From a virus, in IMG/VR virus record IMGVR_UViG_3300043775_000718, positions 1 through 24,465 of that record: a stretch of 24,465 nucleotides of DNA; one strand, written 5' to 3'. Position 1 is the first letter of the stretch, and each line of letters starts with the position of its first letter. Shown one piece after another: positions 1 to 24,465 of the stretch. Under the pieces are notes generated by a model. The model searched no databases and was not told the origin of the DNA. It was given only the letters and a program-made list of their open reading frames with translations. The position numbers and the translations under genes were made by a program.

Positions 1-264
1 CCCATCAGCAATTGCTATTTTGCTTGGAGCGTAATCGTAAACTTCCAACTTCCATTCTTTAATCAATCGGTCTGAATACGCATACCTTTCGCGCAATTTT
101 GGTTCTCGGTATTGAATAACTGGTAAATCAATTCCCGCACCAAACTTAATCAAATGAAGCAATGCCGTTGAGTCCTTACCTCCGCTCCACAAAACTACTG
201 CTCTTGGCCATCTTTTATTCCATTCTTTGATTTTATGTATTGTTGTATCTATTAGTTGTTTCAT
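1..264 (-). CDS. Partial PAPS-reductase / PP-loop ATPase-like protein (N-terminal 88 residues)
   Basis: The gene starts at an ATG (262-264) that shares one base with the TAA of the preceding gene (TAATG junction) and runs off the left edge, so only 88 residues are visible. Residues 27-32 read SGGKDS, followed by TALLHL, which is the pyrophosphate-binding PP-loop of the adenine nucleotide alpha-hydrolase superfamily as found in phosphoadenosine phosphosulfate (PAPS) reductases and DndC-type proteins. Before it lie a basic helical stretch (HKIKEWNKRWPRA) and a hydrophobic strand (VVLW), as usual for this fold. Such genes are common in phage genomes, and roles in sulfur metabolism or in DNA modification have been proposed for them. 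The substrate cannot be told from this fragment, because the C-terminal half that separates the subfamilies lies outside the window. It is the only enzyme-like gene co-directional with and directly downstream of the ejection-type proteins. Confidence 0.85.
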   Translation of the reverse strand, partial: MKQLIDTTIHKIKEWNKRWPRAVVLWSGGKDSTALLHLIKFGAGIDLPVIQYREPKLRERYAYSDRLIKEWKLEVYDYAPSKIAIADG

Positions 265-1049
265 TAAATAATAATCGCTACACCTGCCAATGCTCCAATT
301 GCCGCTCCACCAGCACCAATCATTTGTCCTTGTTGTGCGTTTGCACTTGCTGCATTTTGTTGAGCATTTTGAAGCATCATTTGCTCGTAATTACGTTTGC
401 TCTCCTGTTCGGATTGCGAAATTTTTTGCAATTGTCCAAGGTTTGAATTAATCCAATCAGTTGTTGATTGATTCAATTGTTGCGCTCCCTGCATAACATT
501 TCCTTGGAATTGTTGCATTGAAGCAAGGTTCTGCGCTTTTGCAGCTTGTTCAGCGGCAATAATAGAAGCTGGATCAAGCCCGCCAATTGGAGCAGGAGTT
601 TGAGCCAGATATCCTTGCTGGATAGCCAAATTTTGCAACCTTGCCTGCCTACCTGCTTCGGTAGCTTGATCAAATACAGCAGATCGTCCAATAAGACTAT
701 CAGTTCCAAGTCCAGACGTTAAACCTTTTTTAACCGCCCAATTGTTCATCCATTCTTTTGTGGCATCAAGATTTGTAGCCTCTGCAACTTTAGAACCAAG
801 GTCTTCGCGCATTTGCGCTATTTCTGGGTTAAGCAACCTTTCAAACTCTTTGGAGCGTTGCAGGTTATCCATTCCAAATTCAGCAGCCTGTTGCGATGTT
901 TTTGTCGCATCAAAACTTTGCATTATTGGAGCTTGAGATGAATACGCTTTAAGAAGATTTGCTTGATTTTGAAGTCCTGCAAGTTGCCCTTGAGACTGCA
1001 TCATTAGCCCTTGATATGATGCCGTTGAATTTGGTGGTTTATATGCCAT
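264..1049 (-). CDS. Q/A-rich internal virion (ejection)-type protein, paralogue 2
   Basis: This 261-residue protein is rich in Gln, Ala and Met and looks almost wholly helical. It aligns with the protein encoded just upstream (1053-1964). Both have a segment of the form GM-x-N-(L/V)-QRS-(K/R)-E near residue 60-70, a short GLG-x-x-S-x-IG motif (about 113-121 here), and AP-(I/V)-GG-(L/I)-DP (153-160 here) followed by an AAKA-x-NL-x-x-MQ stretch. The last 20 residues are glycine/alanine-rich and hydrophobic (about 243-261, ending in AGVAIII), which could insert in a membrane. Position after a nozzle-like tail gene and this composition resemble the small internal virion proteins of T7-like phages (gp14 type), which leave the particle and form part of an envelope channel; that role is inference. 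The ATG start lies 3 bases after the upstream stop. Confidence 0.7.
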   Translation of the reverse strand: MAYKPPNSTASYQGLMMQSQGQLAGLQNQANLLKAYSSQAPIMQSFDATKTSQQAAEFGMDNLQRSKEFERLLNPEIAQMREDLGSKVAEATNLDATKEWMNNWAVKKGLTSGLGTDSLIGRSAVFDQATEAGRQARLQNLAIQQGYLAQTPAPIGGLDPASIIAAEQAAKAQNLASMQQFQGNVMQGAQQLNQSTTDWINSNLGQLQKISQSEQESKRNYEQMMLQNAQQNAASANAQQGQMIGAGGAAIGALAGVAIII

Positions 1050-8558: not shown

Positions 8559-8987
8559 TTAATCTTCGTCTTCTTCAGTTTCGTTTTCTTCTTCGTTTTC
8601 TTCGGATTCACCAGCGGCAGCTTTCAAACCCATTTCAATAGCGTCTTCAGTATCTTCTTTCTCTTCCATCTCTGGCATATCTTCGCAACACTCTGGTTTG
8701 ATACCACAAATTTGAAGCTCAACAGAATGACGTTTTTCATTCTTGCCATTGCGAGTAATATCTTCAGTTCGTTCCATCACTTTTTTATAATGGATCACTG
8801 CCATTCCTTCTTTACCAAGTTTTTCAAGTCCTTTTACATTGTCAAAATAAAGCGATGGATAGTGATATTTTGGCGATTCATCAGATTCTTCAGAACCCAT
8901 TGAAATCGTCATTCCACCAGACTTCAGTTCTTCTCCAAGATCAATAAAATCGGATTTTAGTTTAGCTTTTTTGTTAGCGTATGGCAT
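8559..8987 (-). CDS. Capsid-associated-type small protein with acidic tail, 142 aa
   Basis: The core (about residues 35-105) contains a YPSLYFDNVKGLEKLG segment, then a strand (GMAVIHYKKVMERTED), then SVELQICGIKP. This layout (Tyr-Pro-x-L-Tyr-x-Asn, 'Gly-Leu', a basic strand, then a Ser-Val-Glu-Leu strand) recurs in small phage virion proteins near capsid genes, which suggests a capsid-stabilising or structural role; that family link is from memory. The last 35 residues are almost all Glu/Asp/Asn, strongly acidic. The start at 8987 overlaps the 3' end of the upstream membrane-protein gene by 14 bases, and the frame has no better internal start. Confidence 0.7.
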   Translation of the reverse strand: MPYANKKAKLKSDFIDLGEELKSGGMTISMGSEESDESPKYHYPSLYFDNVKGLEKLGKEGMAVIHYKKVMERTEDITRNGKNEKRHSVELQICGIKPECCEDMPEMEEKEDTEDAIEMGLKAAAGESEENEEENETEEDED

Positions 8988-9279
8988 ATTTTAAGATGAA
9001 TGAAATAATTAAAACAATTACAGAAGGAATTGTCAAGTCTGCAAAGAATGCTTTAAATGTCCAGTATTTTGGATTAAATCCACCAAACACGCTCATGTCT
9101 TTTCTCAACTTGCTTGCAGATGCTTCAATATTCCGATATTCGGCTTGTGAAATTTCCCTGCCAGCAAAAAAAAAGACCCCTGCAATAGCACCGATAAACG
9201 GATTCTTTGTCAAAGCATATCCGATGCTTTGAAGTGCAAAGCAGATTAGGATATGAGAAATGTTAAGATAGTTTTTCAT
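8974..9279 (-). CDS. Small phage membrane protein, holin-like family, 101 aa
   Basis: There are three hydrophobic stretches: residues about 7-24 (SHILICFALQSIGYAL), 28-42 (FIGAIAGVFFFAG) and 83-98 (IPSVIVLIISFILKYAI). Between the second and third lies a conserved-looking segment, GREISQAEYRNIEA..., then GGFNPKYW. I know this 'GRE-x-x-QAEYR ... GGF-(D/N)-P' pattern from small phage membrane proteins often labelled holin or unknown membrane protein. The gene starts with ATGA overlap with the end of the 85-aa mini-fibre gene, and the next gene overlaps its 3' end by 14 bases. It lies apart from the lysis cassette at 17504-18578, so it may have a role other than lysis, such as membrane or superinfection function. 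A run of nine A on the plus strand (9166-9174) encodes FFF here and is a possible slippage site. Confidence 0.75.
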   Translation of the reverse strand: MKNYLNISHILICFALQSIGYALTKNPFIGAIAGVFFFAGREISQAEYRNIEASASKLRKDMSVFGGFNPKYWTFKAFFADLTIPSVIVLIISFILKYAIR

Positions 9280-9533
9280 TTTGCAGTCCAGCCTGTATTT
9301 CCAGAACCGCTTGTTTTAATATAAAGAGTTGTTAATGTTGACCCGCTTGTATTGGTATAAATACTTCCAACTGGTGCAATAACAACATTTTCTGGTGAAC
9401 TTGTTCCAGATGCAATTATAGAACCATTAGATAAAATTATGTGTCCATTATTATTAACAGTCATCTGGTCAAAGCCACCTACGCCAATAATTGCCTGTGT
9501 TCCGTCTGTTGATGCTTTAATGTTTATACTCAT
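9276..9533 (-). CDS. Mini-fibre: anchor joined directly to C-terminal cap, 85 aa
   Basis: This 85-residue protein consists of the N-terminal cassette shared with the next two upstream genes (residues 1-30, MSINIKASTDGTQAIIGVGG and onwards) followed straight by the C-terminal cap (about 45-85: SPENVV-x-APVGSIYTN ... TLYIKTSGSGNTGWTAK). The cap also ends the 466-aa tailspike-like protein (9540-10940) and the 407-aa fibre (12574-13797). The payload that sits between anchor and cap in those proteins is missing. Near the 5' end the DNA is identical over 47 bases to the 482-aa gene (9474-9520 versus 12339-12385). It may be a minimal short fibre, an assembly plug, or a deletion product that has stayed intact. 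The stop is TGA, overlapping the ATG of the membrane-protein gene. Confidence 0.8.
   Translation of the reverse strand: MSINIKASTDGTQAIIGVGGFDQMTVNNNGHIILSNGSIIASGTSSPENVVIAPVGSIYTNTSGSTLTTLYIKTSGSGNTGWTAK
9444..9533 (-). repeat. Anchor cassette copy 3 of 3
   Basis: First 30 codons of the 85-aa gene. They encode M-S-(I)-N-(I)-K-A-S-T-D-G-T-Q-A-I-I-G-V-G-G and a QM-x-V-x-N-x-G tail. The stretch 9474-9520 is identical to 12339-12385. Confidence 0.85.
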
Positions 9534-9539
9534 AATTTT

Positions 9540-10940
9540 TTATTTTGCTACCCACCCTGTATTTCCTGATCCAGATTCTTTTACATATAAAGTTGTTCCC
9601 GCTCCTCCATCTCGTCTTGTGTATATAGAGCCAACTGGAGCAGATAATGCGTTTTCTGGAGAACCTAAACCATATAAAGTTAGTGTATTTACTTCAGCAT
9701 CTGAAATTCTACCTTTTATTTGAATATACGAATTATTCCAATTAGCATCAATTGGAATTGCCCTAAATGATGCAACTTGTTTTCCTGTATTTATTGTATC
9801 ACGTCCCCAAAGCGCATTTCCAATATATTTTGTTGTATTATTTGCTGTTGATGTATTTTGAACAATGCAAGCATCAATTCCAGAAGAAGCACTTTTATAT
9901 ACAAGAACTCGTCCACCAAAAATTCTTTCTCCCGCATCTGCTGATCCAGTCCAAAAATTTAAACCATTATCTAATACAACAATTGGGTCTTGAACACCAG
10001 AACCAGAAAAAAGAAAATTATTTCCCGTTCCAGTATTGAATCTTGCATGAGCAATTGGAGGTGAAACAAGTCCAGCCCAATTAATCAATTCAATAAAATT
10101 AAAATCTTGATATATATCAACAAGAATTGGAGTTATACCTTGCGCATCAACGGCAATTCTATATGTATTCCACCTGCACAAATTATTTGTAGCATTTTCA
10201 CCTATTCTAATTCCAGTTGTAGTTGCTGAAAAAATAACTTTTACATCCCATATTTCTCCTTCAAGAAGAAATGATGTGCTATTTTTTATTCTAATTCCAT
10301 ATGGAACTGAACCCGCTTGAACATCTTCAACTATCCATCTGTTATTTCCAGCATTAGCTGTTTGCAAATCTCCATCATGATATATGCAAGTTTGTTGACA
10401 AGAACCCGGCCTTCTTATTGAAATTTCAGAATATTCAAGATTGTAATATCTTATTGCATATGGAGCATTTGGTGCCAATACTTCTCCAAGAGAAATCTTG
10501 ATTTTTGATCCTACTAAATTTATAGCAGCACCCGTTGATCCAGTATAATACAATTGAACTGAATTATCTGTATATATTTCAGTATTGTTTGTTGTTGTTA
10601 TGCTTGTTGAAAATCTATATTGATTTATATTATTTTCTGGAAACCAAATTGGTTTTCCTGTAGCAATTGCGGCTAAAATTGCTGCATTATTATCTGTTGA
10701 TCCATCTCCAATCGCACCAAAATCTAATACGTTTGCCACATCAGCAAACCTGTTTGCCAATGTTCTTGCTGTAGTCGATCCAGTAGCAAGTGCTGTAGAA
10801 CTTGATGAATTTCCAGAAATTGCTCCTACAAAACTATTAGCTGTCACTACACCAAGGTTGTTCACAATCATTTGATTTCCGCCACTTACGCCAATAATTG
10901 CCTGTGTTCCATCTGTAGATGCTTTAAAATTTGCGCTCAT
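9540..10940 (-). CDS. Tailspike-like protein B, 466 aa
   Basis: Residues 1-40 are the shared anchor (MSANFKASTDGTQAIIGVSG, then NSFVGA). Residues about 53-90 carry TGSTTARTLANRFADVANVL, then DFGAIGDGSTDN, which is the start of a pectin-lyase-like right-handed beta-helix (the 'DFGA-x-GDG-x-x-D' motif of tailspikes and pectate lyases). The body (about 90-425) is Asn/Ile/Gly-rich and strand-like, with no readable catalytic triad. Residues about 427-466 are the cap (SPENALSAPVGSIYT ... TTLYVKESGSGNTGW). In this family the trimeric spike binds or degrades a surface polysaccharide; whether this one cleaves is unknown. It is a paralogue of the 482-aa gene upstream only in the first ~95 residues, which points to module exchange. 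Confidence 0.8.
   Translation of the reverse strand: MSANFKASTDGTQAIIGVSGGNQMIVNNLGVVTANSFVGAISGNSSSSTALATGSTTARTLANRFADVANVLDFGAIGDGSTDNNAAILAAIATGKPIWFPENNINQYRFSTSITTTNNTEIYTDNSVQLYYTGSTGAAINLVGSKIKISLGEVLAPNAPYAIRYYNLEYSEISIRRPGSCQQTCIYHDGDLQTANAGNNRWIVEDVQAGSVPYGIRIKNSTSFLLEGEIWDVKVIFSATTTGIRIGENATNNLCRWNTYRIAVDAQGITPILVDIYQDFNFIELINWAGLVSPPIAHARFNTGTGNNFLFSGSGVQDPIVVLDNGLNFWTGSADAGERIFGGRVLVYKSASSGIDACIVQNTSTANNTTKYIGNALWGRDTINTGKQVASFRAIPIDANWNNSYIQIKGRISDAEVNTLTLYGLGSPENALSAPVGSIYTRRDGGAGTTLYVKESGSGNTGWVAK
10851..10940 (-). repeat. Anchor cassette copy 2 of 3
   Basis: First 30 codons of the 466-aa gene, the same MSANFKASTDGTQAIIGV segment as copies 1 and 3 with a few synonymous and conservative changes. 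Further in, 10708-10781 matches 12181-12254 with one difference in 74 bases. Confidence 0.85.
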
Positions 10941-10949
10941 AGTTTTTTA

Positions 10950-12398
10950 TTATACAATTCTAATTTGAACAACACTTCCATTTCTATAAAGCCCACCAAC
11001 CGGAACTCCACCTGCCGCAGCAGCAACATCATTTACATAACTTGTAGAAGATTGCAAAACATTTAAAATTATAGTTCCTGTTTCGTTAATTAAAATTGGA
11101 GAAATATTGTTTGTTACTCCATAAATATGGAATCTATCGTCTGAAAGTTTTTCAAGCTTCCATTTTGCAGTCGATGAATTTGATAATATAATTCCTGCCT
11201 GATGGCTTGTAGTATTTCCAGATGAAACACTTAAATGACAATCAAAATTTGAAAAATTTCTAAATGAAGCAGATGAATTTAATCCAGACGGCATTCTTGC
11301 AAATGTTCCCGGATTTACAGTGCATTCAGATACATCAATTATATTTACATGAGAACCCTTTGATGATATAATACTATACGCATTTCCTTCATTTCTCAAA
11401 CAAGCACCATTTGCAGTATGTGTGTTTGTTGCTCCATTCCACCCAAGATAGATTCCGGTATCAATTTGTGGAATCCAATCCATTGGGTCTTGCTTAAAAA
11501 ATAATCCCCATTTTGTTGTTCTTGAAATTGCAATTCCATTTTGAAACCAGTTTTGACCAGTTGATCCATTAACCCAAGTTCTAATTGCGCTGGTTTGCTT
11601 TCCTCCTGTTGGAGAAGAACCAAGGCCCGTTATTTCAATCGCATTAGATGTAAATCCAAAAAATGGATTGGAACTGGCATCGCTATTATCGCCACGATCT
11701 GTTGCAATTTCTGCTTCAATTGCAACCATGCGGCAAATAGGTTCTCCGGGAATTTGATTTGCGACGAAGTTGGAAGACCAAACTTCTGTTGTTCCAACTG
11801 GAAGATCAACATTGTTTACAAGACATGATAGCATGACTCGGTTATTTGTTCCGGGTGTAAGCTCTGGGAAATTATTGTTTGTAAGTCTTAAGCCAATTGC
11901 TTCTCCGGCAGCATTTGCCGTTGTAGATTCATTGGCAATACAAATTGGGCCATATGGTGCTGTAGGAATAACCCTACCATAAAATAATGTCGGTGGACGA
12001 AAACCCGGTGCTGGATTCACCGAATTGATTAACCTTGCGCTTGGAGAATAAATCCACAATTTTGGATCAGGGCTATAAAAATTTCCGGGAACATTATATG
12101 ATCCTTCTGGAACTAAAATAATACTTTTACTGCTAAATTGAGCCGCTTGAAATGCAACAGTATCATCAGCAATCCCATTACCAATCGCACCAAAATCTAA
12201 TACGTTTGCCACATCAGCAAACCTATTTGCCAATGTTCTTGCTGTAGTCGATCCTGTTGCTATGACACTGGAGCTATTCAGCCCTACAAAGCTATTTGCC
12301 GTCACTATGCCAGCGTTGCTCACAGCCATCTGATCAACGCCACCTACGCCAATAATTGCCTGTGTTCCGTCTGTTGATGCTTTAAAATTTGCGCTCAT
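10950..12398 (-). CDS. Tailspike-like protein A, 482 aa
   Basis: This protein has the shared anchor (1-40), a TGSTTARTLANRFADVANVL segment (48-67) and the DFGAIGNGIADDT motif (68-80) that opens a pectate-lyase-type beta-helix. The body differs from protein B. It is rich in Asn/Ser/Pro and contains a stretch with Trp-Asn-Gly and two GTGIYLGWN-like strands; no active-site set can be named. Its C-terminus is not the SPEN cap. It ends AAAAGGVPVGGLYRNGSVVQ followed by an IRIV strand, an ending I know from other phage fibre proteins and distinct from its neighbours. The start overlaps the stop of the 57-aa gene (ATGA at 12395-12398). The likely role is host-surface binding, possibly depolymerase activity. 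Confidence 0.8.
   Translation of the reverse strand: MSANFKASTDGTQAIIGVGGVDQMAVSNAGIVTANSFVGLNSSSVIATGSTTARTLANRFADVANVLDFGAIGNGIADDTVAFQAAQFSSKSIILVPEGSYNVPGNFYSPDPKLWIYSPSARLINSVNPAPGFRPPTLFYGRVIPTAPYGPICIANESTTANAAGEAIGLRLTNNNFPELTPGTNNRVMLSCLVNNVDLPVGTTEVWSSNFVANQIPGEPICRMVAIEAEIATDRGDNSDASSNPFFGFTSNAIEITGLGSSPTGGKQTSAIRTWVNGSTGQNWFQNGIAISRTTKWGLFFKQDPMDWIPQIDTGIYLGWNGATNTHTANGACLRNEGNAYSIISSKGSHVNIIDVSECTVNPGTFARMPSGLNSSASFRNFSNFDCHLSVSSGNTTSHQAGIILSNSSTAKWKLEKLSDDRFHIYGVTNNISPILINETGTIILNVLQSSTSYVNDVAAAAGGVPVGGLYRNGSVVQIRIV
12309..12398 (-). repeat. Anchor cassette copy 1 of 3
   Basis: First 30 codons of the 482-aa gene: MSANFKASTDGTQAIIGVGG, then a VDQMAVSNAG strand. It contains the 47-base segment shared exactly with 9474-9520. 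Confidence 0.85.
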
Positions 12399-12568
12399 AC
12401 TTGTAGATGGTTTTCTTCCATTTCTCTACGAGCGTCGAATTCCAATGCTTGTTGTTCTTTGATTTGTTGATTGATATGGTTAATCAATGGTGCAGATATA
12501 CGGAACGGAAGTTCCACTATTGCTGCGTTCAATACTTGTAGTTGTTGTTCGTTGAATTCAATTTTCAT
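12395..12568 (-). CDS. Small conserved phage protein between fibre genes, 57 aa
   Basis: The start is the ATG at 12568 (MKIEFNEQQLQVLN), 5 bases after the stop of the 407-aa fibre gene; the longer start at 12589 would overlap that gene. The 57 residues form two predicted helices: EQQLQVLNAAIVELPFRISA and a Gln/Glu-rich second helix (INQQIKEQQALEFDARREME). I know short phage proteins with a similar 'x-QL-x-VLN-x-AI-x-x-LP-x-x-x-AAPLI' layout. A chaperone or fibre-assembly role is possible but unproven. Its position, wedged between a fibre gene and the tailspike-like genes with ATGA coupling, suggests a role in fibre folding or attachment. Confidence 0.75.
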   Translation of the reverse strand: MKIEFNEQQLQVLNAAIVELPFRISAPLINHINQQIKEQQALEFDARREMEENHLQV

Positions 12569-12573
12569 GTTAT

Positions 12574-13797
12574 TTATTTTGCTGTCCATCCTGTATTTCC
12601 CGCTCCTCCAGATGTTTTAATGTATAATGTTGTTGATGCTCCTCCTGATGTATTTAAATAAACACTACCAACAAATGCAGATACAACACCCTCTGGAGAA
12701 CCTGTTCCAGATGTAAATGATGCTCCTGTATTTAATGTTACGGCTTTTGTCCATACATTATTCCACCTGTTAGAACCGCCACCAAGTTCAAATGTAAGGT
12801 CTGCATTTGGGAAAACAGATTTTGTTTTTACACCCAATGTTTCTATTCCAAGAGTGGTGTAGTTGTCTGATGCAAGATATAAAATGTTTAACTCATTTGT
12901 TCCCGCGCTATCAAATGCTCTAATTGCAGAATTGTTTGGTATGGCAATTGCGGCTGAAGAATAACTTCCTTTAGCAAGGTCTAATCCTGTGTTTAACCCT
13001 GTTTGATAACAACCAAAAGCAACATCTGTTACTTGTCCTGTGCTTACACTCTTCTCTACAACAAAACCAGCCCTCAAGTTTACTTCAGTATATGGATTAA
13101 CTCCAAACGCAACATCAACAGCTTGTCCTTTTCTAATGGTTGACATGAAACTCATTGAAAAACGATTTGGATTAAAATTCCTTGCAGATGGAGCAGGAAC
13201 AGAATGGTAATATATTACTTCTGATTCAATTCCTATGCAGAAAGAACTATTAGGAGTGTTTGTTCCGTCACCAGATTGCGCTACTGTAACAATTCCATAT
13301 ACTTCTCCATTCAATCCAGATGTTGCGTTTACTCCACAAAATCTTCCACCCTCAACAAATGTTCCGTTTCCTCCAACGGTATCAATTGCTTCAGCATAAA
13401 TTCCTTGAACCCTTGTTGCTACTTGTGTATTTTGTTTAAAACCAACACAAAATAAAGATGGATTTTGATAAACTCCACTTGATCCAGCGTTAGAATATTT
13501 AATAAATGTTCCTGCTGACGAAGTGTCTGTTGATGAGTTTTTTGAAATAGCAAGAGGGGTTTTATTTGATGCAGCTTGATAATAAAATCCTGGTGCATTT
13601 GCTGGAATAGGCCCAAATCCAACTACCCCCAATTCTCCAGCAGAACCAACACTTAACACATCTTGCGTAGTTGCTCCAGAATTACCTCTTGCCAACTTAA
13701 TTGTTCCATTTGGCAACGATGGCACTGCAAGAGTAAAGTTTTGTGTTGTTGTCGGTGATTGTCCTACTTGAACTGCGTTTGCTTTGAGGAGACTCAT
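12574..13797 (-). CDS. Tail-fibre protein with shared C-terminal cap, 407 aa
   Basis: The start is chosen at 13797 (MSLLKANAVQVGQSPTTTQN), 4 bases after the upstream stop. N-terminal residues 1-55 have a pattern I know from phage fibre N-termini (LKANAVQ-(V/I)-GQS, PNGTIKLARGN, TTQDVLSV). The body is Gly/Asn/Ser-rich. Near the C-terminus is a DLTFELGGGSNRWNNVWT segment, of the 'GS-x-x-RWN-x-(I/V)-(Y/W)' type seen in front of C-terminal fibre domains. Residues about 360-407 are the cap (GSPEGVVSAFVGSVYLNTSG ... GAGNTGWTAK) that also ends the 466-aa and 85-aa proteins. It does not carry the MSANFKASTD anchor. The role is probably host-surface recognition. Confidence 0.75.
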   Translation of the reverse strand: MSLLKANAVQVGQSPTTTQNFTLAVPSLPNGTIKLARGNSGATTQDVLSVGSAGELGVVGFGPIPANAPGFYYQAASNKTPLAISKNSSTDTSSAGTFIKYSNAGSSGVYQNPSLFCVGFKQNTQVATRVQGIYAEAIDTVGGNGTFVEGGRFCGVNATSGLNGEVYGIVTVAQSGDGTNTPNSSFCIGIESEVIYYHSVPAPSARNFNPNRFSMSFMSTIRKGQAVDVAFGVNPYTEVNLRAGFVVEKSVSTGQVTDVAFGCYQTGLNTGLDLAKGSYSSAAIAIPNNSAIRAFDSAGTNELNILYLASDNYTTLGIETLGVKTKSVFPNADLTFELGGGSNRWNNVWTKAVTLNTGASFTSGTGSPEGVVSAFVGSVYLNTSGGASTTLYIKTSGGAGNTGWTAK

Positions 13798-13801
13798 AAT
13801 T

Positions 13802-14440
13802 TTAAACAATTGTGTAAACACTACCTAATGGAATTGTCAATACGACTCCAGAATTTATTGTGATTGGCCCTGATGACATTGCATTTTTTCCAGATGTGAT
13901 TGTGTAATTATCAGTCATTACAATGTCATTTTCAAAAAAAACTCGGTTTGTTCCACCACCGACAGGTTGATCTCCGATGCCAGACCAAGTTGTGTTGTTG
14001 TAGCCTTCAAACTGATTGCGATCCGTGTTAAAACGAATAAGACCAGTCTGCCCAGTTGGACGGGTTGCAGTAGTTCCTACAGGAAGTTTAATCCAGTTAA
14101 ATGTTTTCTGACCAGTAATTGTTTGATTTGTTGAAAGAAAAACAACATCTGTCCAAGGTAAAAGTGCTGGTGCGTATACGTCAAAAAAACGAATTATGTA
14201 GCAGAGCAATCCTTCGCCGGGAAGACGAGGAAATCCATCAATTGTAGCAGGATCAGCACTTGGATCACAAGGAATATTCCAAACAACCCTTCCATTTACA
14301 ATTGATTTTTCAATCGTTCCGTAAAGAGCGTAAACAAGATTGTCAATCAGAGACGGAACTGATTCAGATGAAATTGTTGGATAAGGAACATCTGGGCAAC
14401 AGGTGCTGGAATAATTAGAGTTGTTACATCCGCAAGACAT
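13802..14440 (-). CDS. Cys-rich fibre-type protein sharing C-terminal cap with the collagen-like protein, 212 aa
   Basis: The start is the ATG at 14440 (MSCGCNNSNYSSTCCP); an in-frame TTG at 14482 would add 14 residues but looks less convincing. Five Cys in the first 16 residues form a dense cluster that could cross-link a trimer. Residues 122-155 hold a GTTATRPTGQTGLIRFNTDR-type segment followed by FEGYNNTTWSGIG, a unit I know from many phage fibre proteins. The C-terminal segment (162-212; GGGTNRVFFENDIVMTDNYT ... GPITINSGVVLTIP) matches the last 50 residues of the upstream 574-aa collagen-like protein, so the two share an exchanged end module. The likely role is fibre tip or adhesin. The gap to the next gene is 4 bases. 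Confidence 0.75.
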   Translation of the reverse strand: MSCGCNNSNYSSTCCPDVPYPTISSESVPSLIDNLVYALYGTIEKSIVNGRVVWNIPCDPSADPATIDGFPRLPGEGLLCYIIRFFDVYAPALLPWTDVVFLSTNQTITGQKTFNWIKLPVGTTATRPTGQTGLIRFNTDRNQFEGYNNTTWSGIGDQPVGGGTNRVFFENDIVMTDNYTITSGKNAMSSGPITINSGVVLTIPLGSVYTIV

Positions 14441-14489: not shown

Positions 14490-16214
14490 TTATACTACTG
14501 TCCAAACACCGCCCGGAGGAACTGTAACTGTAACTCCACTTGTTACTGTAATAGGCCCAAATGTCCCTGCGTTTCGTGATGTTGGAATAGTATAAGAAGT
14601 ATCTACAGTTTGTTCATTAAGAAAGAAAACAGAATCTGTTCCACCACCAGTTGGAGAGTCGGCAGCCCTCCATGCAGACCAAATTCCACCCCATCTTTGT
14701 CGCACATGAATTCTATTTGTAATATATTCTTGCCAAATTTGTCCGCCATCTCCAGTTCCATTAATTCCAATTGTATAGTTATAAAGTATTCCTGAATTAG
14801 TTGGAGTATTTGTAGCGCCAAATGAGTAACTTAAATATGCTCCTGCTGGTCTATCTATATTTGCATTAATATTCACTACTGACACGCTTAAAAATTGACC
14901 TGTAGCACCAGTAGAACCTTGAATACCTTGGATGCCTTGAATTCCAGTAGCACCTGTTGAACCAATACCAGTAGCTCCAGTTGATCCTTGAATTCCTTGA
15001 ACTCCTGTAGCACCAGTGCTTCCAGTAGAGCCTTGAATACCTTGAATGCCTTGAACACCTTGAACTCCTGTAGAACCAGTTGAACCTTGGATGCCAGTAG
15101 CTCCTGTAGAACCTTGAATACCTTGAATACCAGTTGATCCAGTGATTCCTTGTATTCCTGTGTTTCCAGTTGCTCCAGTTGAACCTGTAGCTCCTTGTCC
15201 ACCAATAACACCTGTTGCGCCTGTAGAACCAATGCCAGTTGCTCCAGTTGCTCCAGTAAGACCAGAAGTAACAATTGCAAAAATCAATTGCTGGTTGTTT
15301 AAAAACTGAGATGTTCCTCCAGATGTAACAAGTGTTACTGGAATTGAAATATAACTATTTAAAATTACAGTAGGTGTAGCTGTAATTTTCCAAGTTTGAA
15401 AGTTGCTTGAGTTTCCTTGATCTTGAATTACAAATGTGTCGTTTGTTTTGAATAGAGGAAAGAAAACATCAATGTCATTTCCAAGTGCGTCAATGTGTGA
15501 AACAGTTACATTTGTAGAAGATGTCTGTGTTGCATTATTCCAATACAATGTATTTATTAAAGGAACTCCAGATAGTTTAGTTGTATCTGCTTTGTAATTG
15601 TAAAAAGTAGATGACTGACCAGCAGCACCTGTTGCCCCGGTAAATCCAGTAGCTCCAGTAGAACCAATTCCAGTCGCGCCTGTTGAACCATTACCTCCAA
15701 CTACACCAGTTGCACCAGTTGTTCCTTGTCCTCCAATAACGCCAGTTGCTCCAGTGCTGCCTTGGACTCCAATAACGCCAGTTGAACCAGTGCTGCCTTG
15801 GATGCCTTGAACCCCTTGGATACCCTGCACGCCCTGAGGGCCAGTAGAACCAATTAAACCTTGAATTCCTGTTGCACCTTGAATTCCACTTGATCCTGTA
15901 GCGCCAGAACCGGTTGCTCCAGTTAATCCAGTTGCTCCAGTTGGCCCACCGCTTGGGCCAGTTGCTCCAGTTGGCCCATTATTTCCTTGAACTCCAACTC
16001 CAGTTGCTCCTGTAAGTCCAGTTGCGCCTGTAGAACCTTGCAATCCAATTCCAGTTGCGCCTTGCAAACCTGTAGCACCACTTGCGCCAATTCCCGTAGC
16101 ACCAGTAGCTCCAGTTGATCCAACATATGGCCAGTTGCAATCCATCGCATTTAATGGAGCGCATCCGCAGTTTGAAGAACTTTGTGGGTTTGGAACCCAG
16201 TTGTATTTTGCCAT
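14490..16214 (-). CDS. Collagen-like fibre protein with pyocin-knob-like domain, 574 aa
   Basis: Domain order: a Cys-rich N-terminus (1-31: [12 protein letters not shown] near 15-26), a first interrupted Gly-X-Y tract (32-199, mostly GAT, GST and GIQ triplets), a beta-rich globular insert (200-317), a second collagen tract (318-439), a segment [16 protein letters not shown] ... [20 protein letters not shown] ... IWSAWR (440-520) of the pyocin-knob type found in phage receptor-binding tips, and a C-terminal module (522-574; [13 protein letters not shown] ... [13 protein letters not shown]). The last is shared with the 212-aa protein. Collagen tracts form rigid trimeric shafts in phage fibres, and the knob contacts the cell surface; those roles follow from family knowledge. 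The ATG start is 15 bases after the metallopeptidase stop, with no Shine-Dalgarno sequence. Confidence 0.85.
14898..15263 (-). repeat. Collagen-like Gly-X-Y tract 2 of the 574-aa protein
   Basis: Codons 318-439: interrupted triplets built mainly from GAT, GST, GIQ and GVQ, visible on the plus strand as runs of 9-base units such as ccagtagct and ccttgaata. Such DNA is prone to slippage and recombination. Confidence 0.85.
15618..16121 (-). repeat. Collagen-like Gly-X-Y tract 1 of the 574-aa protein
   Basis: Codons 32-199: interrupted Gly-X-Y triplets rich in Thr, Ala, Ser, Gln and Ile, low in Pro. Thr and Ser in the Y position replace hydroxyproline, as is usual for bacterial and phage collagens. 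Several tetrads (GIGA, GPSGG) break the register. Confidence 0.85.
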
Positions 16215-22011: not shown

Positions 22012-22209
22012 TTAATATGGAAATTTAAGGTCAAGTAGTTTTATTTGTTTTTCGCATTCTTGTTCGGTTCCAACAAACAAAACATCTTGAGTTGCAATTG
22101 ATTGATCTGTTTGCTCGTAAAACACAATTAGTTTGTCGGCATAAACCAATTTCCAGTTGCCAGTAGAGTCATCGTATGACCAACCATCTGCGTTAGGCGG
22201 AATTATCAT
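22012..22209 (-). CDS. Hypothetical protein, 65 aa
   Basis: A 65-residue protein coupled to the PATR gene by an ATGA overlap. It has Trp/Tyr/Asp-rich strands (DGWSYDDSTGNWKLVYADK) and a second half with GTEQECEKQIKLLDLKF. The first part resembles a single small beta unit of the 'W-x-Y-D-x-x-x-x-x-W' kind. I do not recognise a family. Its position between fibre genes suggests a virion role. Confidence 0.65.
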   Translation of the reverse strand: MIIPPNADGWSYDDSTGNWKLVYADKLIVFYEQTDQSIATQDVLFVGTEQECEKQIKLLDLKFPY

Positions 22210-23069
22210 GGCACTATTACAGAAAGCGTTGAGGTTGCTGAAGTATATGTTGCGGTTGTTCCAACTGGAACTCCAACTAAAGTTACAGATGGATATGAAT
22301 TAGTCGTTGAGCCTTGAAAAAAACGAAATGCTGTTGTTCCAGATGGAGGCGAAACATTAAAAGAAACTGAAAGTCCAGTTGTAAATGTTGCTGTTGCTGT
22401 TGATGCTCCAGTTGTTTTTATAGCACGAAGCGTTCCAGCAGTAATTGTTGTTGATCCTGTGTAGTTTAGCGTTCCGTTCAATCGAAGCTGCCCTGTTGAT
22501 GTTTTGCTCAAGCTTCCGCTGCCAGAAATATTTCCAGAAAGAGTTAGTATTGTTGTTCCGCTATTCACGCGAAATTGCAATGATTGCGTAGCGTTTATTT
22601 GAAAGTTATTTGGAAGCGTGACACTGTTTCCAGTAATAATTTGCGATGGGCCTGCGGAAGTAAATAATCCAGTTCCAAAAGCGTTATTAGACGAAAAATT
22701 TATTACTGCACCCGCTACTGTTGGAGCGCACAATGTTCCTCCACTATAAGTATTGTTACCTCCAATTGTTAAACTTGTTGTCCCAGTTTTTGCCAACAAT
22801 CCTGATCCACTTATAACTCCATTCAAGGTTGATGCACTGGAAATCGCAATTTGCCCAGCATTTATTTCAGTTGTCCCAGTATAATCACAAATTCCAGAAA
22901 GTGTAAGCCCACCTATTCCATTTTTAATAAGACCAGTTGTTCCAGATATTGCGGTTGAAATAGTTGTGCTTAAATAACACATTAACTGACGAAACGATGC
23001 AGTTGCAGATGCTATCGCACTTACATTATTAATACCGACTTCCGCTGCGCTGGAATTAGTTAAAATCAT
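22206..23069 (-). CDS. Autotransporter-type (PATR) beta-repeat protein in a fibre bank, 287 aa
   Basis: Three units match the passenger-associated transport repeat of autotransporter adhesins (form L-x-K-x-G-x-G-x-L-x-L-x-G-x-x-x-Y-(T/S)-G-x-T-x-I-x-A-G): [14 protein letters not shown] ... [10 protein letters not shown] (46-72), [15 protein letters not shown] ... YSGGT (90-112) and [15 protein letters not shown] ... [12 protein letters not shown] (185-214). They would form a right-handed beta-helix. Unlike true autotransporters there is no signal peptide and no C-terminal beta-barrel; the end is a plain beta domain ([20 protein letters not shown]). It is thus a repeat module placed in a phage fibre context, probably as a receptor-binding shaft. 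The start overlaps the upstream stop as ATGA. Confidence 0.8.
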
Positions 23070-24465
23070 CCAACAATAACATAAAGTGTGTTAGGATTTG
23101 GAGTTACAATTAAACTATATCCAGCACTCGTAATTTGAACAATATTGGAAAGTTGTGTTGCGCCTGTTAAACCGCTTATATCAGAAACAATAATATTTGC
23201 TGGTGTAACTCCTGTAGCCCCAGTAGCACCTTGCGTTCCAACACCTGTAGCTCCCGCTGCACCTGTAGCTCCATCAACGCCAGAAATGCCTGTAGCACCA
23301 GTTGCGCCAACATCACCTTGAATGCCTGTCGCCCCAGTTGCTCCAGTTGCACCCTGCAATGCGGGAGACAAAGAAGTAACAACTTGTGCAATATTACTAT
23401 CCTCAAAGTGCATTGTCATTGTTCTGCCACCAAGATTAAGTGCGTAAAACTTAACTACAATTCGATCTGTAGCTAAAATATTTGTCGCTGGGACTGGGAT
23501 GCTCCACAAATACAATTCATTTACAGTTCCATCTGTAATTGGATGTGGATTAGAAATATTTGTTGCAATTAGCGTTTCTGTTCCAGCAAGATTGCGATAG
23601 TAAACCTCACCATAAATTTGAGGTGTTCCACCATTGGAACTCATAGAAACAAATGTTTCAAAATTCCAGTTGCCAGATGTAATTGTTGTAACATTTGGAT
23701 CATTTGAAATTGTTGCAAATGATCCAACTAATTTGGTTCCCGCTCCACTTGCCGTAAGTGTAGTTCCAACTCCAATTACTAAATTTCTATTCATTTCATA
23801 GTATCCAATGATACTTGAAGATGAAGATGGGTTAAAATAATACACTGCGCCAGAACTAAACCCTTGTGGGCCTTGCGGCCCAGTAGCTCCAGTGGCTCCG
23901 ATGCCGGTAGCCCCCGTTGCACCTGTGCTTCCATCAAGTCCAGTGGCTCCAGTGGCTCCAGTGGCTCCAGTGGCTCCATCAATGCCATTTAATCCGGTCG
24001 CCCCAGTAGCACCATCCGTTCCAGAAATACCTATTGCGCCTGTAGAACCTTGAATTCCTGTCGCCCCCGTGCTACCTTGAACGCCAGCAGTTCCTGTAGC
24101 TCCAGTCGCACCATCAGTGCCAATTAATCCTGTAGCACCAGTTGCACCTGTAGAGCCTGTGGCTCCATCGCTACCTGCAATTCCTGTTGCACCCTGATCA
24201 CCTGTGGCTCCAGTAATACCAGTAGCTCCAGCTTCTCCTTGTAAACCAGTTGCGCCATCAACACCAGCAACACCTGTCGCTCCTGTGCTGCCTTGAATCC
24301 CCGCTCCAGTAGCACCTGTGGCTCCAGCAATAGTTGCAGTTGTTTGAATCGTTCCATCACCAAATTTAATTCCACTTGTATCAACTGAAAGTGCAACTGT
24401 TGCGTCTGGAGTTACGCCAACACCAACTCGTCCAGCATTGCTAACCACAAATGCTGTAGCGTCTG
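23066..24465 (-). CDS. Collagen-like tail fibre, N-terminus beyond the right edge
   Basis: The frame is open to the right edge (codons before the GTG at 24448 read DATAF), so the start lies outside the window. Visible parts are: a [20 protein letters not shown] segment with GDGTIQTTA, typical of fibre necks; a first Gly-X-Y tract (about 41-196 counted from the GTG); a globular beta domain (197-363; [18 protein letters not shown] ... [12 protein letters not shown] ... [11 protein letters not shown] ... [20 protein letters not shown]), a unit I know from other collagen-like proteins; a second short collagen tract (365-413); and a C-terminal segment (414-460; [17 protein letters not shown] ... 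NTLYVIVG). It resembles the 574-aa protein in plan but not in globular domains. The likely role is a long host-binding fibre. Confidence 0.8.
23210..23356 (-). repeat. Second collagen-like tract of the right-edge fibre
   Basis: About 49 codons of interrupted Gly-X-Y ([16 protein letters not shown] and similar) between the globular domain and the C-terminal segment. Confidence 0.8.
23861..24328 (-). repeat. First collagen-like tract of the right-edge fibre
   Basis: About 156 codons of Gly-X-Y with Thr/Ala/Asp-rich X and Y positions. The GDGATG-type units alternate acidic residues, which differs from the GIQ/GST-rich tracts of the 574-aa protein. Confidence 0.85.
23941..23976 (-). repeat. Perfect 9-base tandem repeat, four copies
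   Basis: Four perfect copies of cagtggctc on the plus strand, encoding Gly-Ala-Thr units within the first collagen tract of the right-edge fibre. It is a likely site for in-frame length changes by slippage. Confidence 0.9.

What the first reader, a model, noticed from the sequence alone, without database searches (positions are those of the whole stretch)
9276..12398. Three consecutive genes share one anchor cassette with unrelated payloads, including a payload-free mini-gene
Seen: the genes at 9276-9533, 9540-10940 and 10950-12398 begin with nearly the same 30 codons (MSxNxKASTDGTQAIIGVGG). 9474-9520 equals 12339-12385 over 47 bases, and 10708-10781 matches 12181-12254 with one difference in 74. 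The middles differ, and the ends are of two kinds. The 85-aa gene joins anchor to cap directly. This looks like a recombination cassette for swapping receptor-binding modules, with the mini-gene as an empty slot or a functional short form.
Basis: partly seen in the sequence, partly recalled or inferred. Interest (0 to 1): 0.85.

Follow-up and report, generated by a model that had tools for sequence, protein, structure and literature searches.

The report
Slot-ordered tail genes with payload-free minis
A group of uncultured phages builds its host-recognition proteins from fixed docking ends and interchangeable middles, and in some phages a docking position is filled by a short, conserved version that has no middle at all.

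Summary
The three genes carry one N-terminal anchor, called T1 here. In 48 other groups of related viral contigs T1 occurs once per contig; only the window has three. The host-recognition locus is an ordered row of slots. Each slot has its own anchor (T6/T5, T3, T2, T1) and an exchangeable payload. Anchors are about 97% identical; payloads mostly are not. Gene A's payload sits on a T3 anchor in one phage (56% identity) and on T2 anchors in two others (52%, 37%). A and B are mosaics: nearly identical anchor start and neck, unlike linkers that match different phages, unrelated payloads.

The mini-gene is probably not debris. A relative (L004) carries the same 85-aa gene as its only T1 gene, and the pair looks constrained (neutral-simulation P = 5e-5). 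An 88-aa mini with another cap fills the T2 slot alone in four contigs. I read minis as functional slot-fillers.

The 47-bp identity is ordinary; the 74-bp A-B identity is exceptional. Anchor/payload shuffling and truncated second receptor-binding proteins are known, so this is a new variant of a known kind. What the mini does in the virion is untested.

The parts
9276..9533 (-). T1 mini-gene, 85 aa: anchor (residues 1-30) joined to the GNTGW cap (about 40-85), no payload
   Evidence: ORF; 84% identical full-length homologue in L004; dN 0.109, dS 0.464; neutral simulation P = 5e-5; AF2 cap pLDDT above 90
9444..9533 (-). T1 anchor of the mini-gene (30 codons)
   Evidence: alignment A1 of 18 anchors
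9279..9414 (-). cap module of the mini-gene
   Evidence: tblastn to caps in viral contigs and 233 cultivated-phage records; alignment A2
9540..10940 (-). Gene B, 466 aa: T1 anchor, AISGN-type linker, neck, pectate-lyase-like payload, GNTGW cap
   Evidence: PF12708 28.1 bits against cut-off 27; cap DNA 88% identical over 59 nt to E. coli phage PGN829.1; mosaic
10851..10940 (-). T1 anchor of gene B
10708..10781 (-). neck of gene B (GSTTARTLANRFADVANVLDFGAIG), 73/74 identical to the neck of A
10950..12398 (-). Gene A, 482 aa: T1 anchor, LNSSS-type linker, neck, payload, second kind of C-terminal end (GGLYRNGSVVQIRIV)
   Evidence: payload 56% identical in L029 on a T3 anchor, 52% in L146 and 37% in L184 on T2 anchors; tailspike Dpo31/Dpo36 in PDB at E 1.1e-5 over residues 42-93
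12309..12398 (-). T1 anchor of gene A
12181..12254 (-). neck of gene A
12395..12589 (-). 64-aa gene (57 aa from the internal ATG) directly before gene A with a 4-nt overlap; same place before the mini in L004 and before T1/T2 genes in other contigs
   Evidence: no Pfam or PHROG match
12574..13821 (-). Gene C, T2 slot: anchor MSLLKANAVQVGQSPTTTQNFTLAVP (internal start, 407 aa), payload, GNTGW cap
   Evidence: T2 present once in 49 contig groups
13802..14482 (-). T5 slot gene (ESVPSLI anchor)
8974..9279 (-). 101-aa gene immediately downstream of the mini (4-nt overlap); borders the T1 slot in many relatives
   Evidence: phrog_1443 E 1.8e-19, function unknown

Best explanation
This is the host-recognition gene row of an uncultured tailed phage. 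Each position has its own N-terminal anchor, presumably a docking plug for one site on the tail, followed by an interchangeable payload and an interchangeable C-terminal cap. Payloads move between anchors and between phages by recombination in the conserved anchor and neck DNA. The window has collected three alleles of the T1 position. Gene A and gene B are full-length alleles from different lineages, re-homogenised at anchor start and neck. The third allele is the 85-aa mini. The mini is a selected short allele (anchor plus folding cap) that can fill the T1 position alone, as it does in L004; T2 has an equivalent. Shown by sequence: slots, order, copy number, payload movement, mosaicism, conservation of the minis. 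Inferred: that the anchor docks on the tail, that payloads bind or cut host surface sugars, and that the mini plugs the site or is a short binder.
For: T1 anchor aa identity has a median of 97% over 50 intact genes; 48 payloads give 1128 pairs, of which 105 show similarity over half the shorter payload, mostly at low identity. Copy number and order: T1 once in 48 groups and three times only in the window; T2 once in 49 groups; T2 before T1 in 45 groups and after it in one; T3 before T2 in 12 of 12. A's payload on T1, T3 and T2 anchors with different C-terminal ends. Linkers: A-B 61%, but A 90% and B 82% to different phages; neck A-B 98.6%. Anchor synonymous-codon identity 0.85 against 0.37-0.59 at the starts of three core genes (0.81 in the adjacent 101-aa gene), uncorrelated with core divergence. 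Minis: L004; dN/dS about 0.23 and P = 5e-5; T2 minis in L098, L150, L158, L251 with dN 0.02-0.03 and dS 0.24-0.30.
Against: Only two T1 minis and three distinct T2 minis are known, so selection rests on few comparisons. The anchor part of a mini could stay conserved through exchange with long genes, although the mini-specific part alone also passes (P = 8e-4 for T1; 6e-4 for T2). The triple T1 arrangement rests on one metagenomic contig. No virion or receptor data exist. The AF2 model has low confidence in the anchor, and the model of A failed.
Confidence: 0.72

Rival explanations
1. The mini-genes are relics: truncated receptor-binding genes that kept their anchor and a stray end, as proposed for the 69-aa protein of Klebsiella phage KpV767, at most a docking site for a future payload.
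For: Latka et al. 2019 (PMC6872550) describe 69-aa and 61-aa truncated second receptor-binding proteins with a conserved N-terminal peptide and suggest loss, or a temporary docking site.
Against: The window mini and the L004 mini share one junction and evolve under constraint; the T2 mini is conserved over three distinct sequences. The minis end in a full cap module, whereas the KpV767 protein has no such cap.
Confidence: 0.15
2. Simple tandem duplication of one T1 gene inside this genome, followed by payload divergence.
For: All three genes are adjacent, in one orientation, with similar starts; the A-B neck is 98.6% identical.
Against: Payloads of A and B are unrelated while anchors and necks are nearly identical. 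Their linkers are of two types, each closest to different phages. The mini has a full-length homologue elsewhere.
Confidence: 0.06
3. Assembly artefact: alleles from different phages of the population joined at the repeated anchors.
For: The contig is from a metagenome and the anchors are shared in the population; the longest exact repeats are 47, 44 and 24 nt.
Against: The repeats are shorter than the long k-mers usual in such assemblies (own knowledge; the assembler is not known here). Each junction (end of A to start of B, end of B to start of mini) needs a real molecule. This rival does not touch the finding of minis in other contigs.
Confidence: 0.12
4. A programmed switching system such as an invertible tail-fibre segment or a diversity-generating retroelement.
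For: Variable ends behind constant starts are typical of such systems (own knowledge).
Against: Only weak inverted repeats (18-23 nt, 78-89% complementary), none bordering the genes as an invertible segment would need. All copies are in the same orientation and are complete ORFs. No ORF in the window was recognised as an invertase or reverse transcriptase, but not every ORF was searched.
Confidence: 0.02

Closest known systems
Anchor-based modular receptor-binding proteins of Klebsiella and E. coli phages (PMC6872550, PMC8262889, PMC10408124)
   Same: Conserved N-terminal anchor, exchangeable C-terminal domain, pectate-lyase-like fold; conserved DNA at the anchor end proposed as recombination hotspot (44 and 95 nt motifs, PMC10408124).
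   Different: Here up to four or five anchors form an ordered row with one gene per anchor, the anchors are only about 30-40 aa, and the phage group has no cultivated member in the phage collection searched.
Truncated second receptor-binding proteins of KP32 group C and KP34 group C phages (KpV767, 69 aa; KP-Rio/2015, 61 aa)
   Same: A short ORF that keeps the conserved N-terminal peptide and lacks the enzymatic domain.
   Different: Those are read as non-functional. The minis here have a full C-terminal cap, recur in two anchor classes and look selectively constrained.
Multi-branched tailspike clusters (Menlow group, phiK64-1 group; CBA120-like phages)
   Same: Several receptor-binding genes in a row with position-specific N-termini.
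   Different: No T4gp10-like domain was reported for the window proteins scanned, and no payload-free members were described in the passages read.
Domain shuffling of phage tail proteins (PMC10684548)
   Same: The same process of fragment exchange between phage proteins.
   Different: Here the exchange is tied to identified slots, and one payload was caught on three anchors.

Membership tests
Modular anchor/payload receptor-binding proteins (tailspikes) | N-terminus conserved between related phages while the C-terminal part differs | tested here: met
   Anchor median 97% identity, payloads mostly unlike
Modular anchor/payload receptor-binding proteins (tailspikes) | Payload moves between anchors or phages | tested here: met
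   A payload on T1, T3 and T2 anchors
Modular anchor/payload receptor-binding proteins (tailspikes) | Beta-helix / pectate-lyase-like start of the payload | tested here: met
   B: PF12708 28.1 bits (cut-off 27). A: 20.7 bits, below cut-off, but PDB tailspike Dpo31/Dpo36 at E 1.1e-5
Modular anchor/payload receptor-binding proteins (tailspikes) | Attached to the virion tail and binds or cleaves a host receptor | not testable with these tools
   Needs virion structure or binding assays
Anchor-branched systems with a T4gp10-like docking domain | T4gp10-like domain in one of the receptor-binding proteins | tested here: inconclusive
   None reported by Pfam for eight window proteins; a full relative genome was not scanned
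Truncated, non-functional second receptor-binding protein | Short ORF with conserved N-terminal peptide, no payload | tested here: met
   85-aa T1 mini and 88-aa T2 mini
Truncated, non-functional second receptor-binding protein | Relic without selective constraint | tested here: not met
   dN/dS about 0.23 and neutral P = 5e-5 for T1; dN 0.02-0.03 against dS 0.24-0.30 for T2
Invertible or retroelement-driven tail-fibre switching | Inverted repeats around a segment, or a recombinase or reverse transcriptase nearby | tested here: inconclusive
   Only three weak inverted repeats, none bordering the genes; no such enzyme recognised among the ORFs scanned, but not every ORF was searched

The most novel reading that the evidence does not exclude
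Payload-free minis are working virion parts: blank plugs that occupy a docking site reserved for a receptor-binding protein, so a phage can keep the site structurally closed, dilute the display of full-length alleles that share the anchor, and regain a payload by one recombination step.
Probability: 0.35. Interest if true: 0.72.

Novelty: new variant of a known kind. Interest (0 to 1): 0.55.

Why it matters
How phages change receptor-binding proteins without losing tail fit is a central question in host-range evolution. This locus gives a comparative data set of about 50 contigs in which slots, anchors, necks, payloads and caps can be told apart, and one payload was found on three anchors. If conserved anchor-cap minis are real virion parts, phages may need to fill unused docking sites, and an 'empty' position would be a selected state. 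That can be tested with one deletion and one virion structure in a cultivated relative.

Tried and rejected
The AF2 model of gene A failed (pLDDT 36) and was not used. The fold search with the mini gave no trustworthy match (Foldseek no hit at E 0.001 or better; best VIA Z 3.2 to tailspike depolymerase 8oq1). phmmer of the mini against PDB gave nothing below E 0.2. The T1 anchor was not found in 84,980 bacterial and archaeal genomes. Exact-peptide searches with A and B alone found no relative; the A payload on other anchors only appeared through relatives already fetched. No tblastn match for the 700-aa tail protein in cultivated phages, and only a short region of the 1167-aa protein matched. 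The idea that necks are generally homogenised within a genome was rejected: within-genome median 71% equals between-genome 71%; only the window A-B pair stands out. The small ORFs behind cap genes in PGN829.1, KOX1 and pKP-BM327-1.1 look unlike the 64-aa gene (sequences read), and a tblastn of the 64-aa gene against the phage collection did not return those phages. Invertible segment or retroelement: not supported.

Full report
What is there. The window is an uncultured virus record of 24,465 bases. On the minus strand, in order of transcription, run a CHAP-domain lysis-type gene and a metallophosphatase, a collagen-like gene, a T5-type gene, gene C, a 64-aa gene, gene A, gene B, the mini-gene, a 101-aa gene, and then the virion structural block. 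The cap shared by the mini and B also ends gene C.

What relatives show. Scans of viral contigs returned many relatives of the neighbouring structural genes and 61 loci with the T1 anchor. I classified the N-termini in all fetched loci and merged contigs with near-identical receptor-binding genes. The locus is a row of slots. T6 or T5 come first, then T3, T2 and T1. Order is nearly strict: T2 before T1 in 45 groups and after it in one, T3 before T2 in 12 of 12, T3 before T1 in 11 of 11. T1 occurs once in 48 groups and three times only in the window; T2 never occurs more than once. A close relative (L027, 94% in the 700-aa tail protein) has no T1, T2 or T3 gene at all, so the content of the row turns over quickly while its borders stay.

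Payload exchange. T1 anchors have a median amino-acid identity of 97%. The 48 payloads behind them are mostly unlike; of 1128 pairs, 105 have a hit over half the shorter payload, and most of these are remote. The payload of gene A is found at 56% identity behind a T3 anchor in L029, and at 52% and 37% behind T2 anchors in L146 and L184, where it ends in a different C-terminal domain. Anchor, payload and cap therefore move independently.

Traces of exchange inside the window. A and B are 95% identical over the first 60 nt, 61% in the linker, 98.6% in the 69-nt neck, and have unrelated payloads. The linker of A is closest to one set of phages (90%) and that of B to another (82%). So A and B are two pre-existing T1 alleles brought together, with local homogenisation of anchor start and neck. 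The neck identity is an outlier: the 99th percentile between genomes is 90%, and no other within-genome pair passes 88%. The 47-nt A-mini identity is not an outlier. Among aa-identical positions, synonymous-codon identity in T1 anchors is 0.85, against 0.37-0.59 in the first 30 codons of three core genes, and does not follow core divergence. The adjacent 101-aa gene is also high (0.81), as expected for a recombination border. This fits anchors being exchanged; strong codon constraint on the anchor cannot be excluded.

The mini-gene. In L004, whose counterpart of the 1167-aa structural protein is only 54% identical to the window's, the same 85-aa gene (84% identity, same junction) stands directly behind the 64-aa gene and is the only T1 gene. 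The pair differs at 41 nt: 19 synonymous and 14 nonsynonymous codons, dN 0.109, dS 0.464. Under a neutral simulation such conservation without a stop has P = 5e-5 for the whole gene and 8e-4 for the part outside the anchor. The T2 slot has its own mini of 88 aa with a different cap (GYITIKDISGTPRKLAVVS), as sole T2 gene in four contigs with three distinct sequences; dN is 0.02-0.03 and dS 0.24-0.30. Two further short anchor-cap genes of other types occur in L061. AlphaFold2 folds most of the cap of the T1 mini with pLDDT above 90 and the anchor at 64-74; no known fold could be assigned.

Mechanism. The best reading is a multi-slot receptor-binding array in which each anchor addresses one docking site, payloads are exchanged through conserved anchor and neck DNA, and minis are selected short alleles that can occupy a slot alone. 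Docking, receptor binding and the plug role are inference from the resemblance to tailspikes (PF12708; Dpo31/Dpo36) and from the slot pattern.

Comparison with what is known. Anchor/payload receptor-binding proteins, their horizontal exchange and conserved DNA motifs at the anchor end are published (PMC6872550, PMC8262889, PMC10408124, PMC10684548). Latka et al. also describe two truncated second receptor-binding proteins of 69 and 61 aa, read as non-functional or as temporary docking sites. I read the 69-aa one: it has no cap of the kinds seen here. What is added here: ordered single-copy slots in an uncultivated phage group, one payload on three anchors, and minis that recur in two anchor classes and look constrained.

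Limits. The triple T1 array rests on one contig. Selection on the minis rests on few sequences. Copy-number counts come from contigs, some of which are partial. No function was measured.

Noticed in passing
window 12395-12589; L138 3623-3844; L139 3623-3838: The 64-aa gene overlaps the 3' end of cap gene C by 16 nt; in E. coli phage PGN829.1 and Klebsiella phage KOX1 an unrelated-looking small ORF overlaps the cap-ending tailspike gene by the same 16 nt. In L029 the 64-aa gene is duplicated, one copy before each of two receptor-binding genes.
   Followed up: partly
window 9540-9643: The DNA of gene B's cap is 88% identical over 59 nt to E. coli phage PGN829.1 and about 75% to Klebsiella phages; the cap is a C-terminus used across several phage families.
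   Followed up: partly
window 14490-16214 and 23066-24448: Two collagen-like Gly-X-Y tail genes with many imperfect 9-nt-period repeats; the first and the T5 gene share a C-terminal end (GPITV..GV..TVP..) that also ends the 101-aa T6 genes of relatives.
   Followed up: no
L061 5476-5709 and 5711-5965: Two adjacent short anchor-cap genes (77 and 84 aa) of further anchor types; the first ends like window gene A (FYRNGSVVQIRV).
   Followed up: partly
window 264-1049 and 1053-1964: Two adjacent genes (261 and 303 aa) are paralogues at 38% identity; function unknown.
   Followed up: no
window 1-264: Start of a gene that reads like a PAPS-reductase/ATP-pyrophosphatase-type protein (WSGGKDSTALLHLI motif), cut by the window end; no Pfam hit on the fragment.
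   Followed up: no
window 22206-23069: 287-aa protein with passenger-associated-transport-repeats (PF12951, E 6e-11), unusual in a phage tail region.
   Followed up: no
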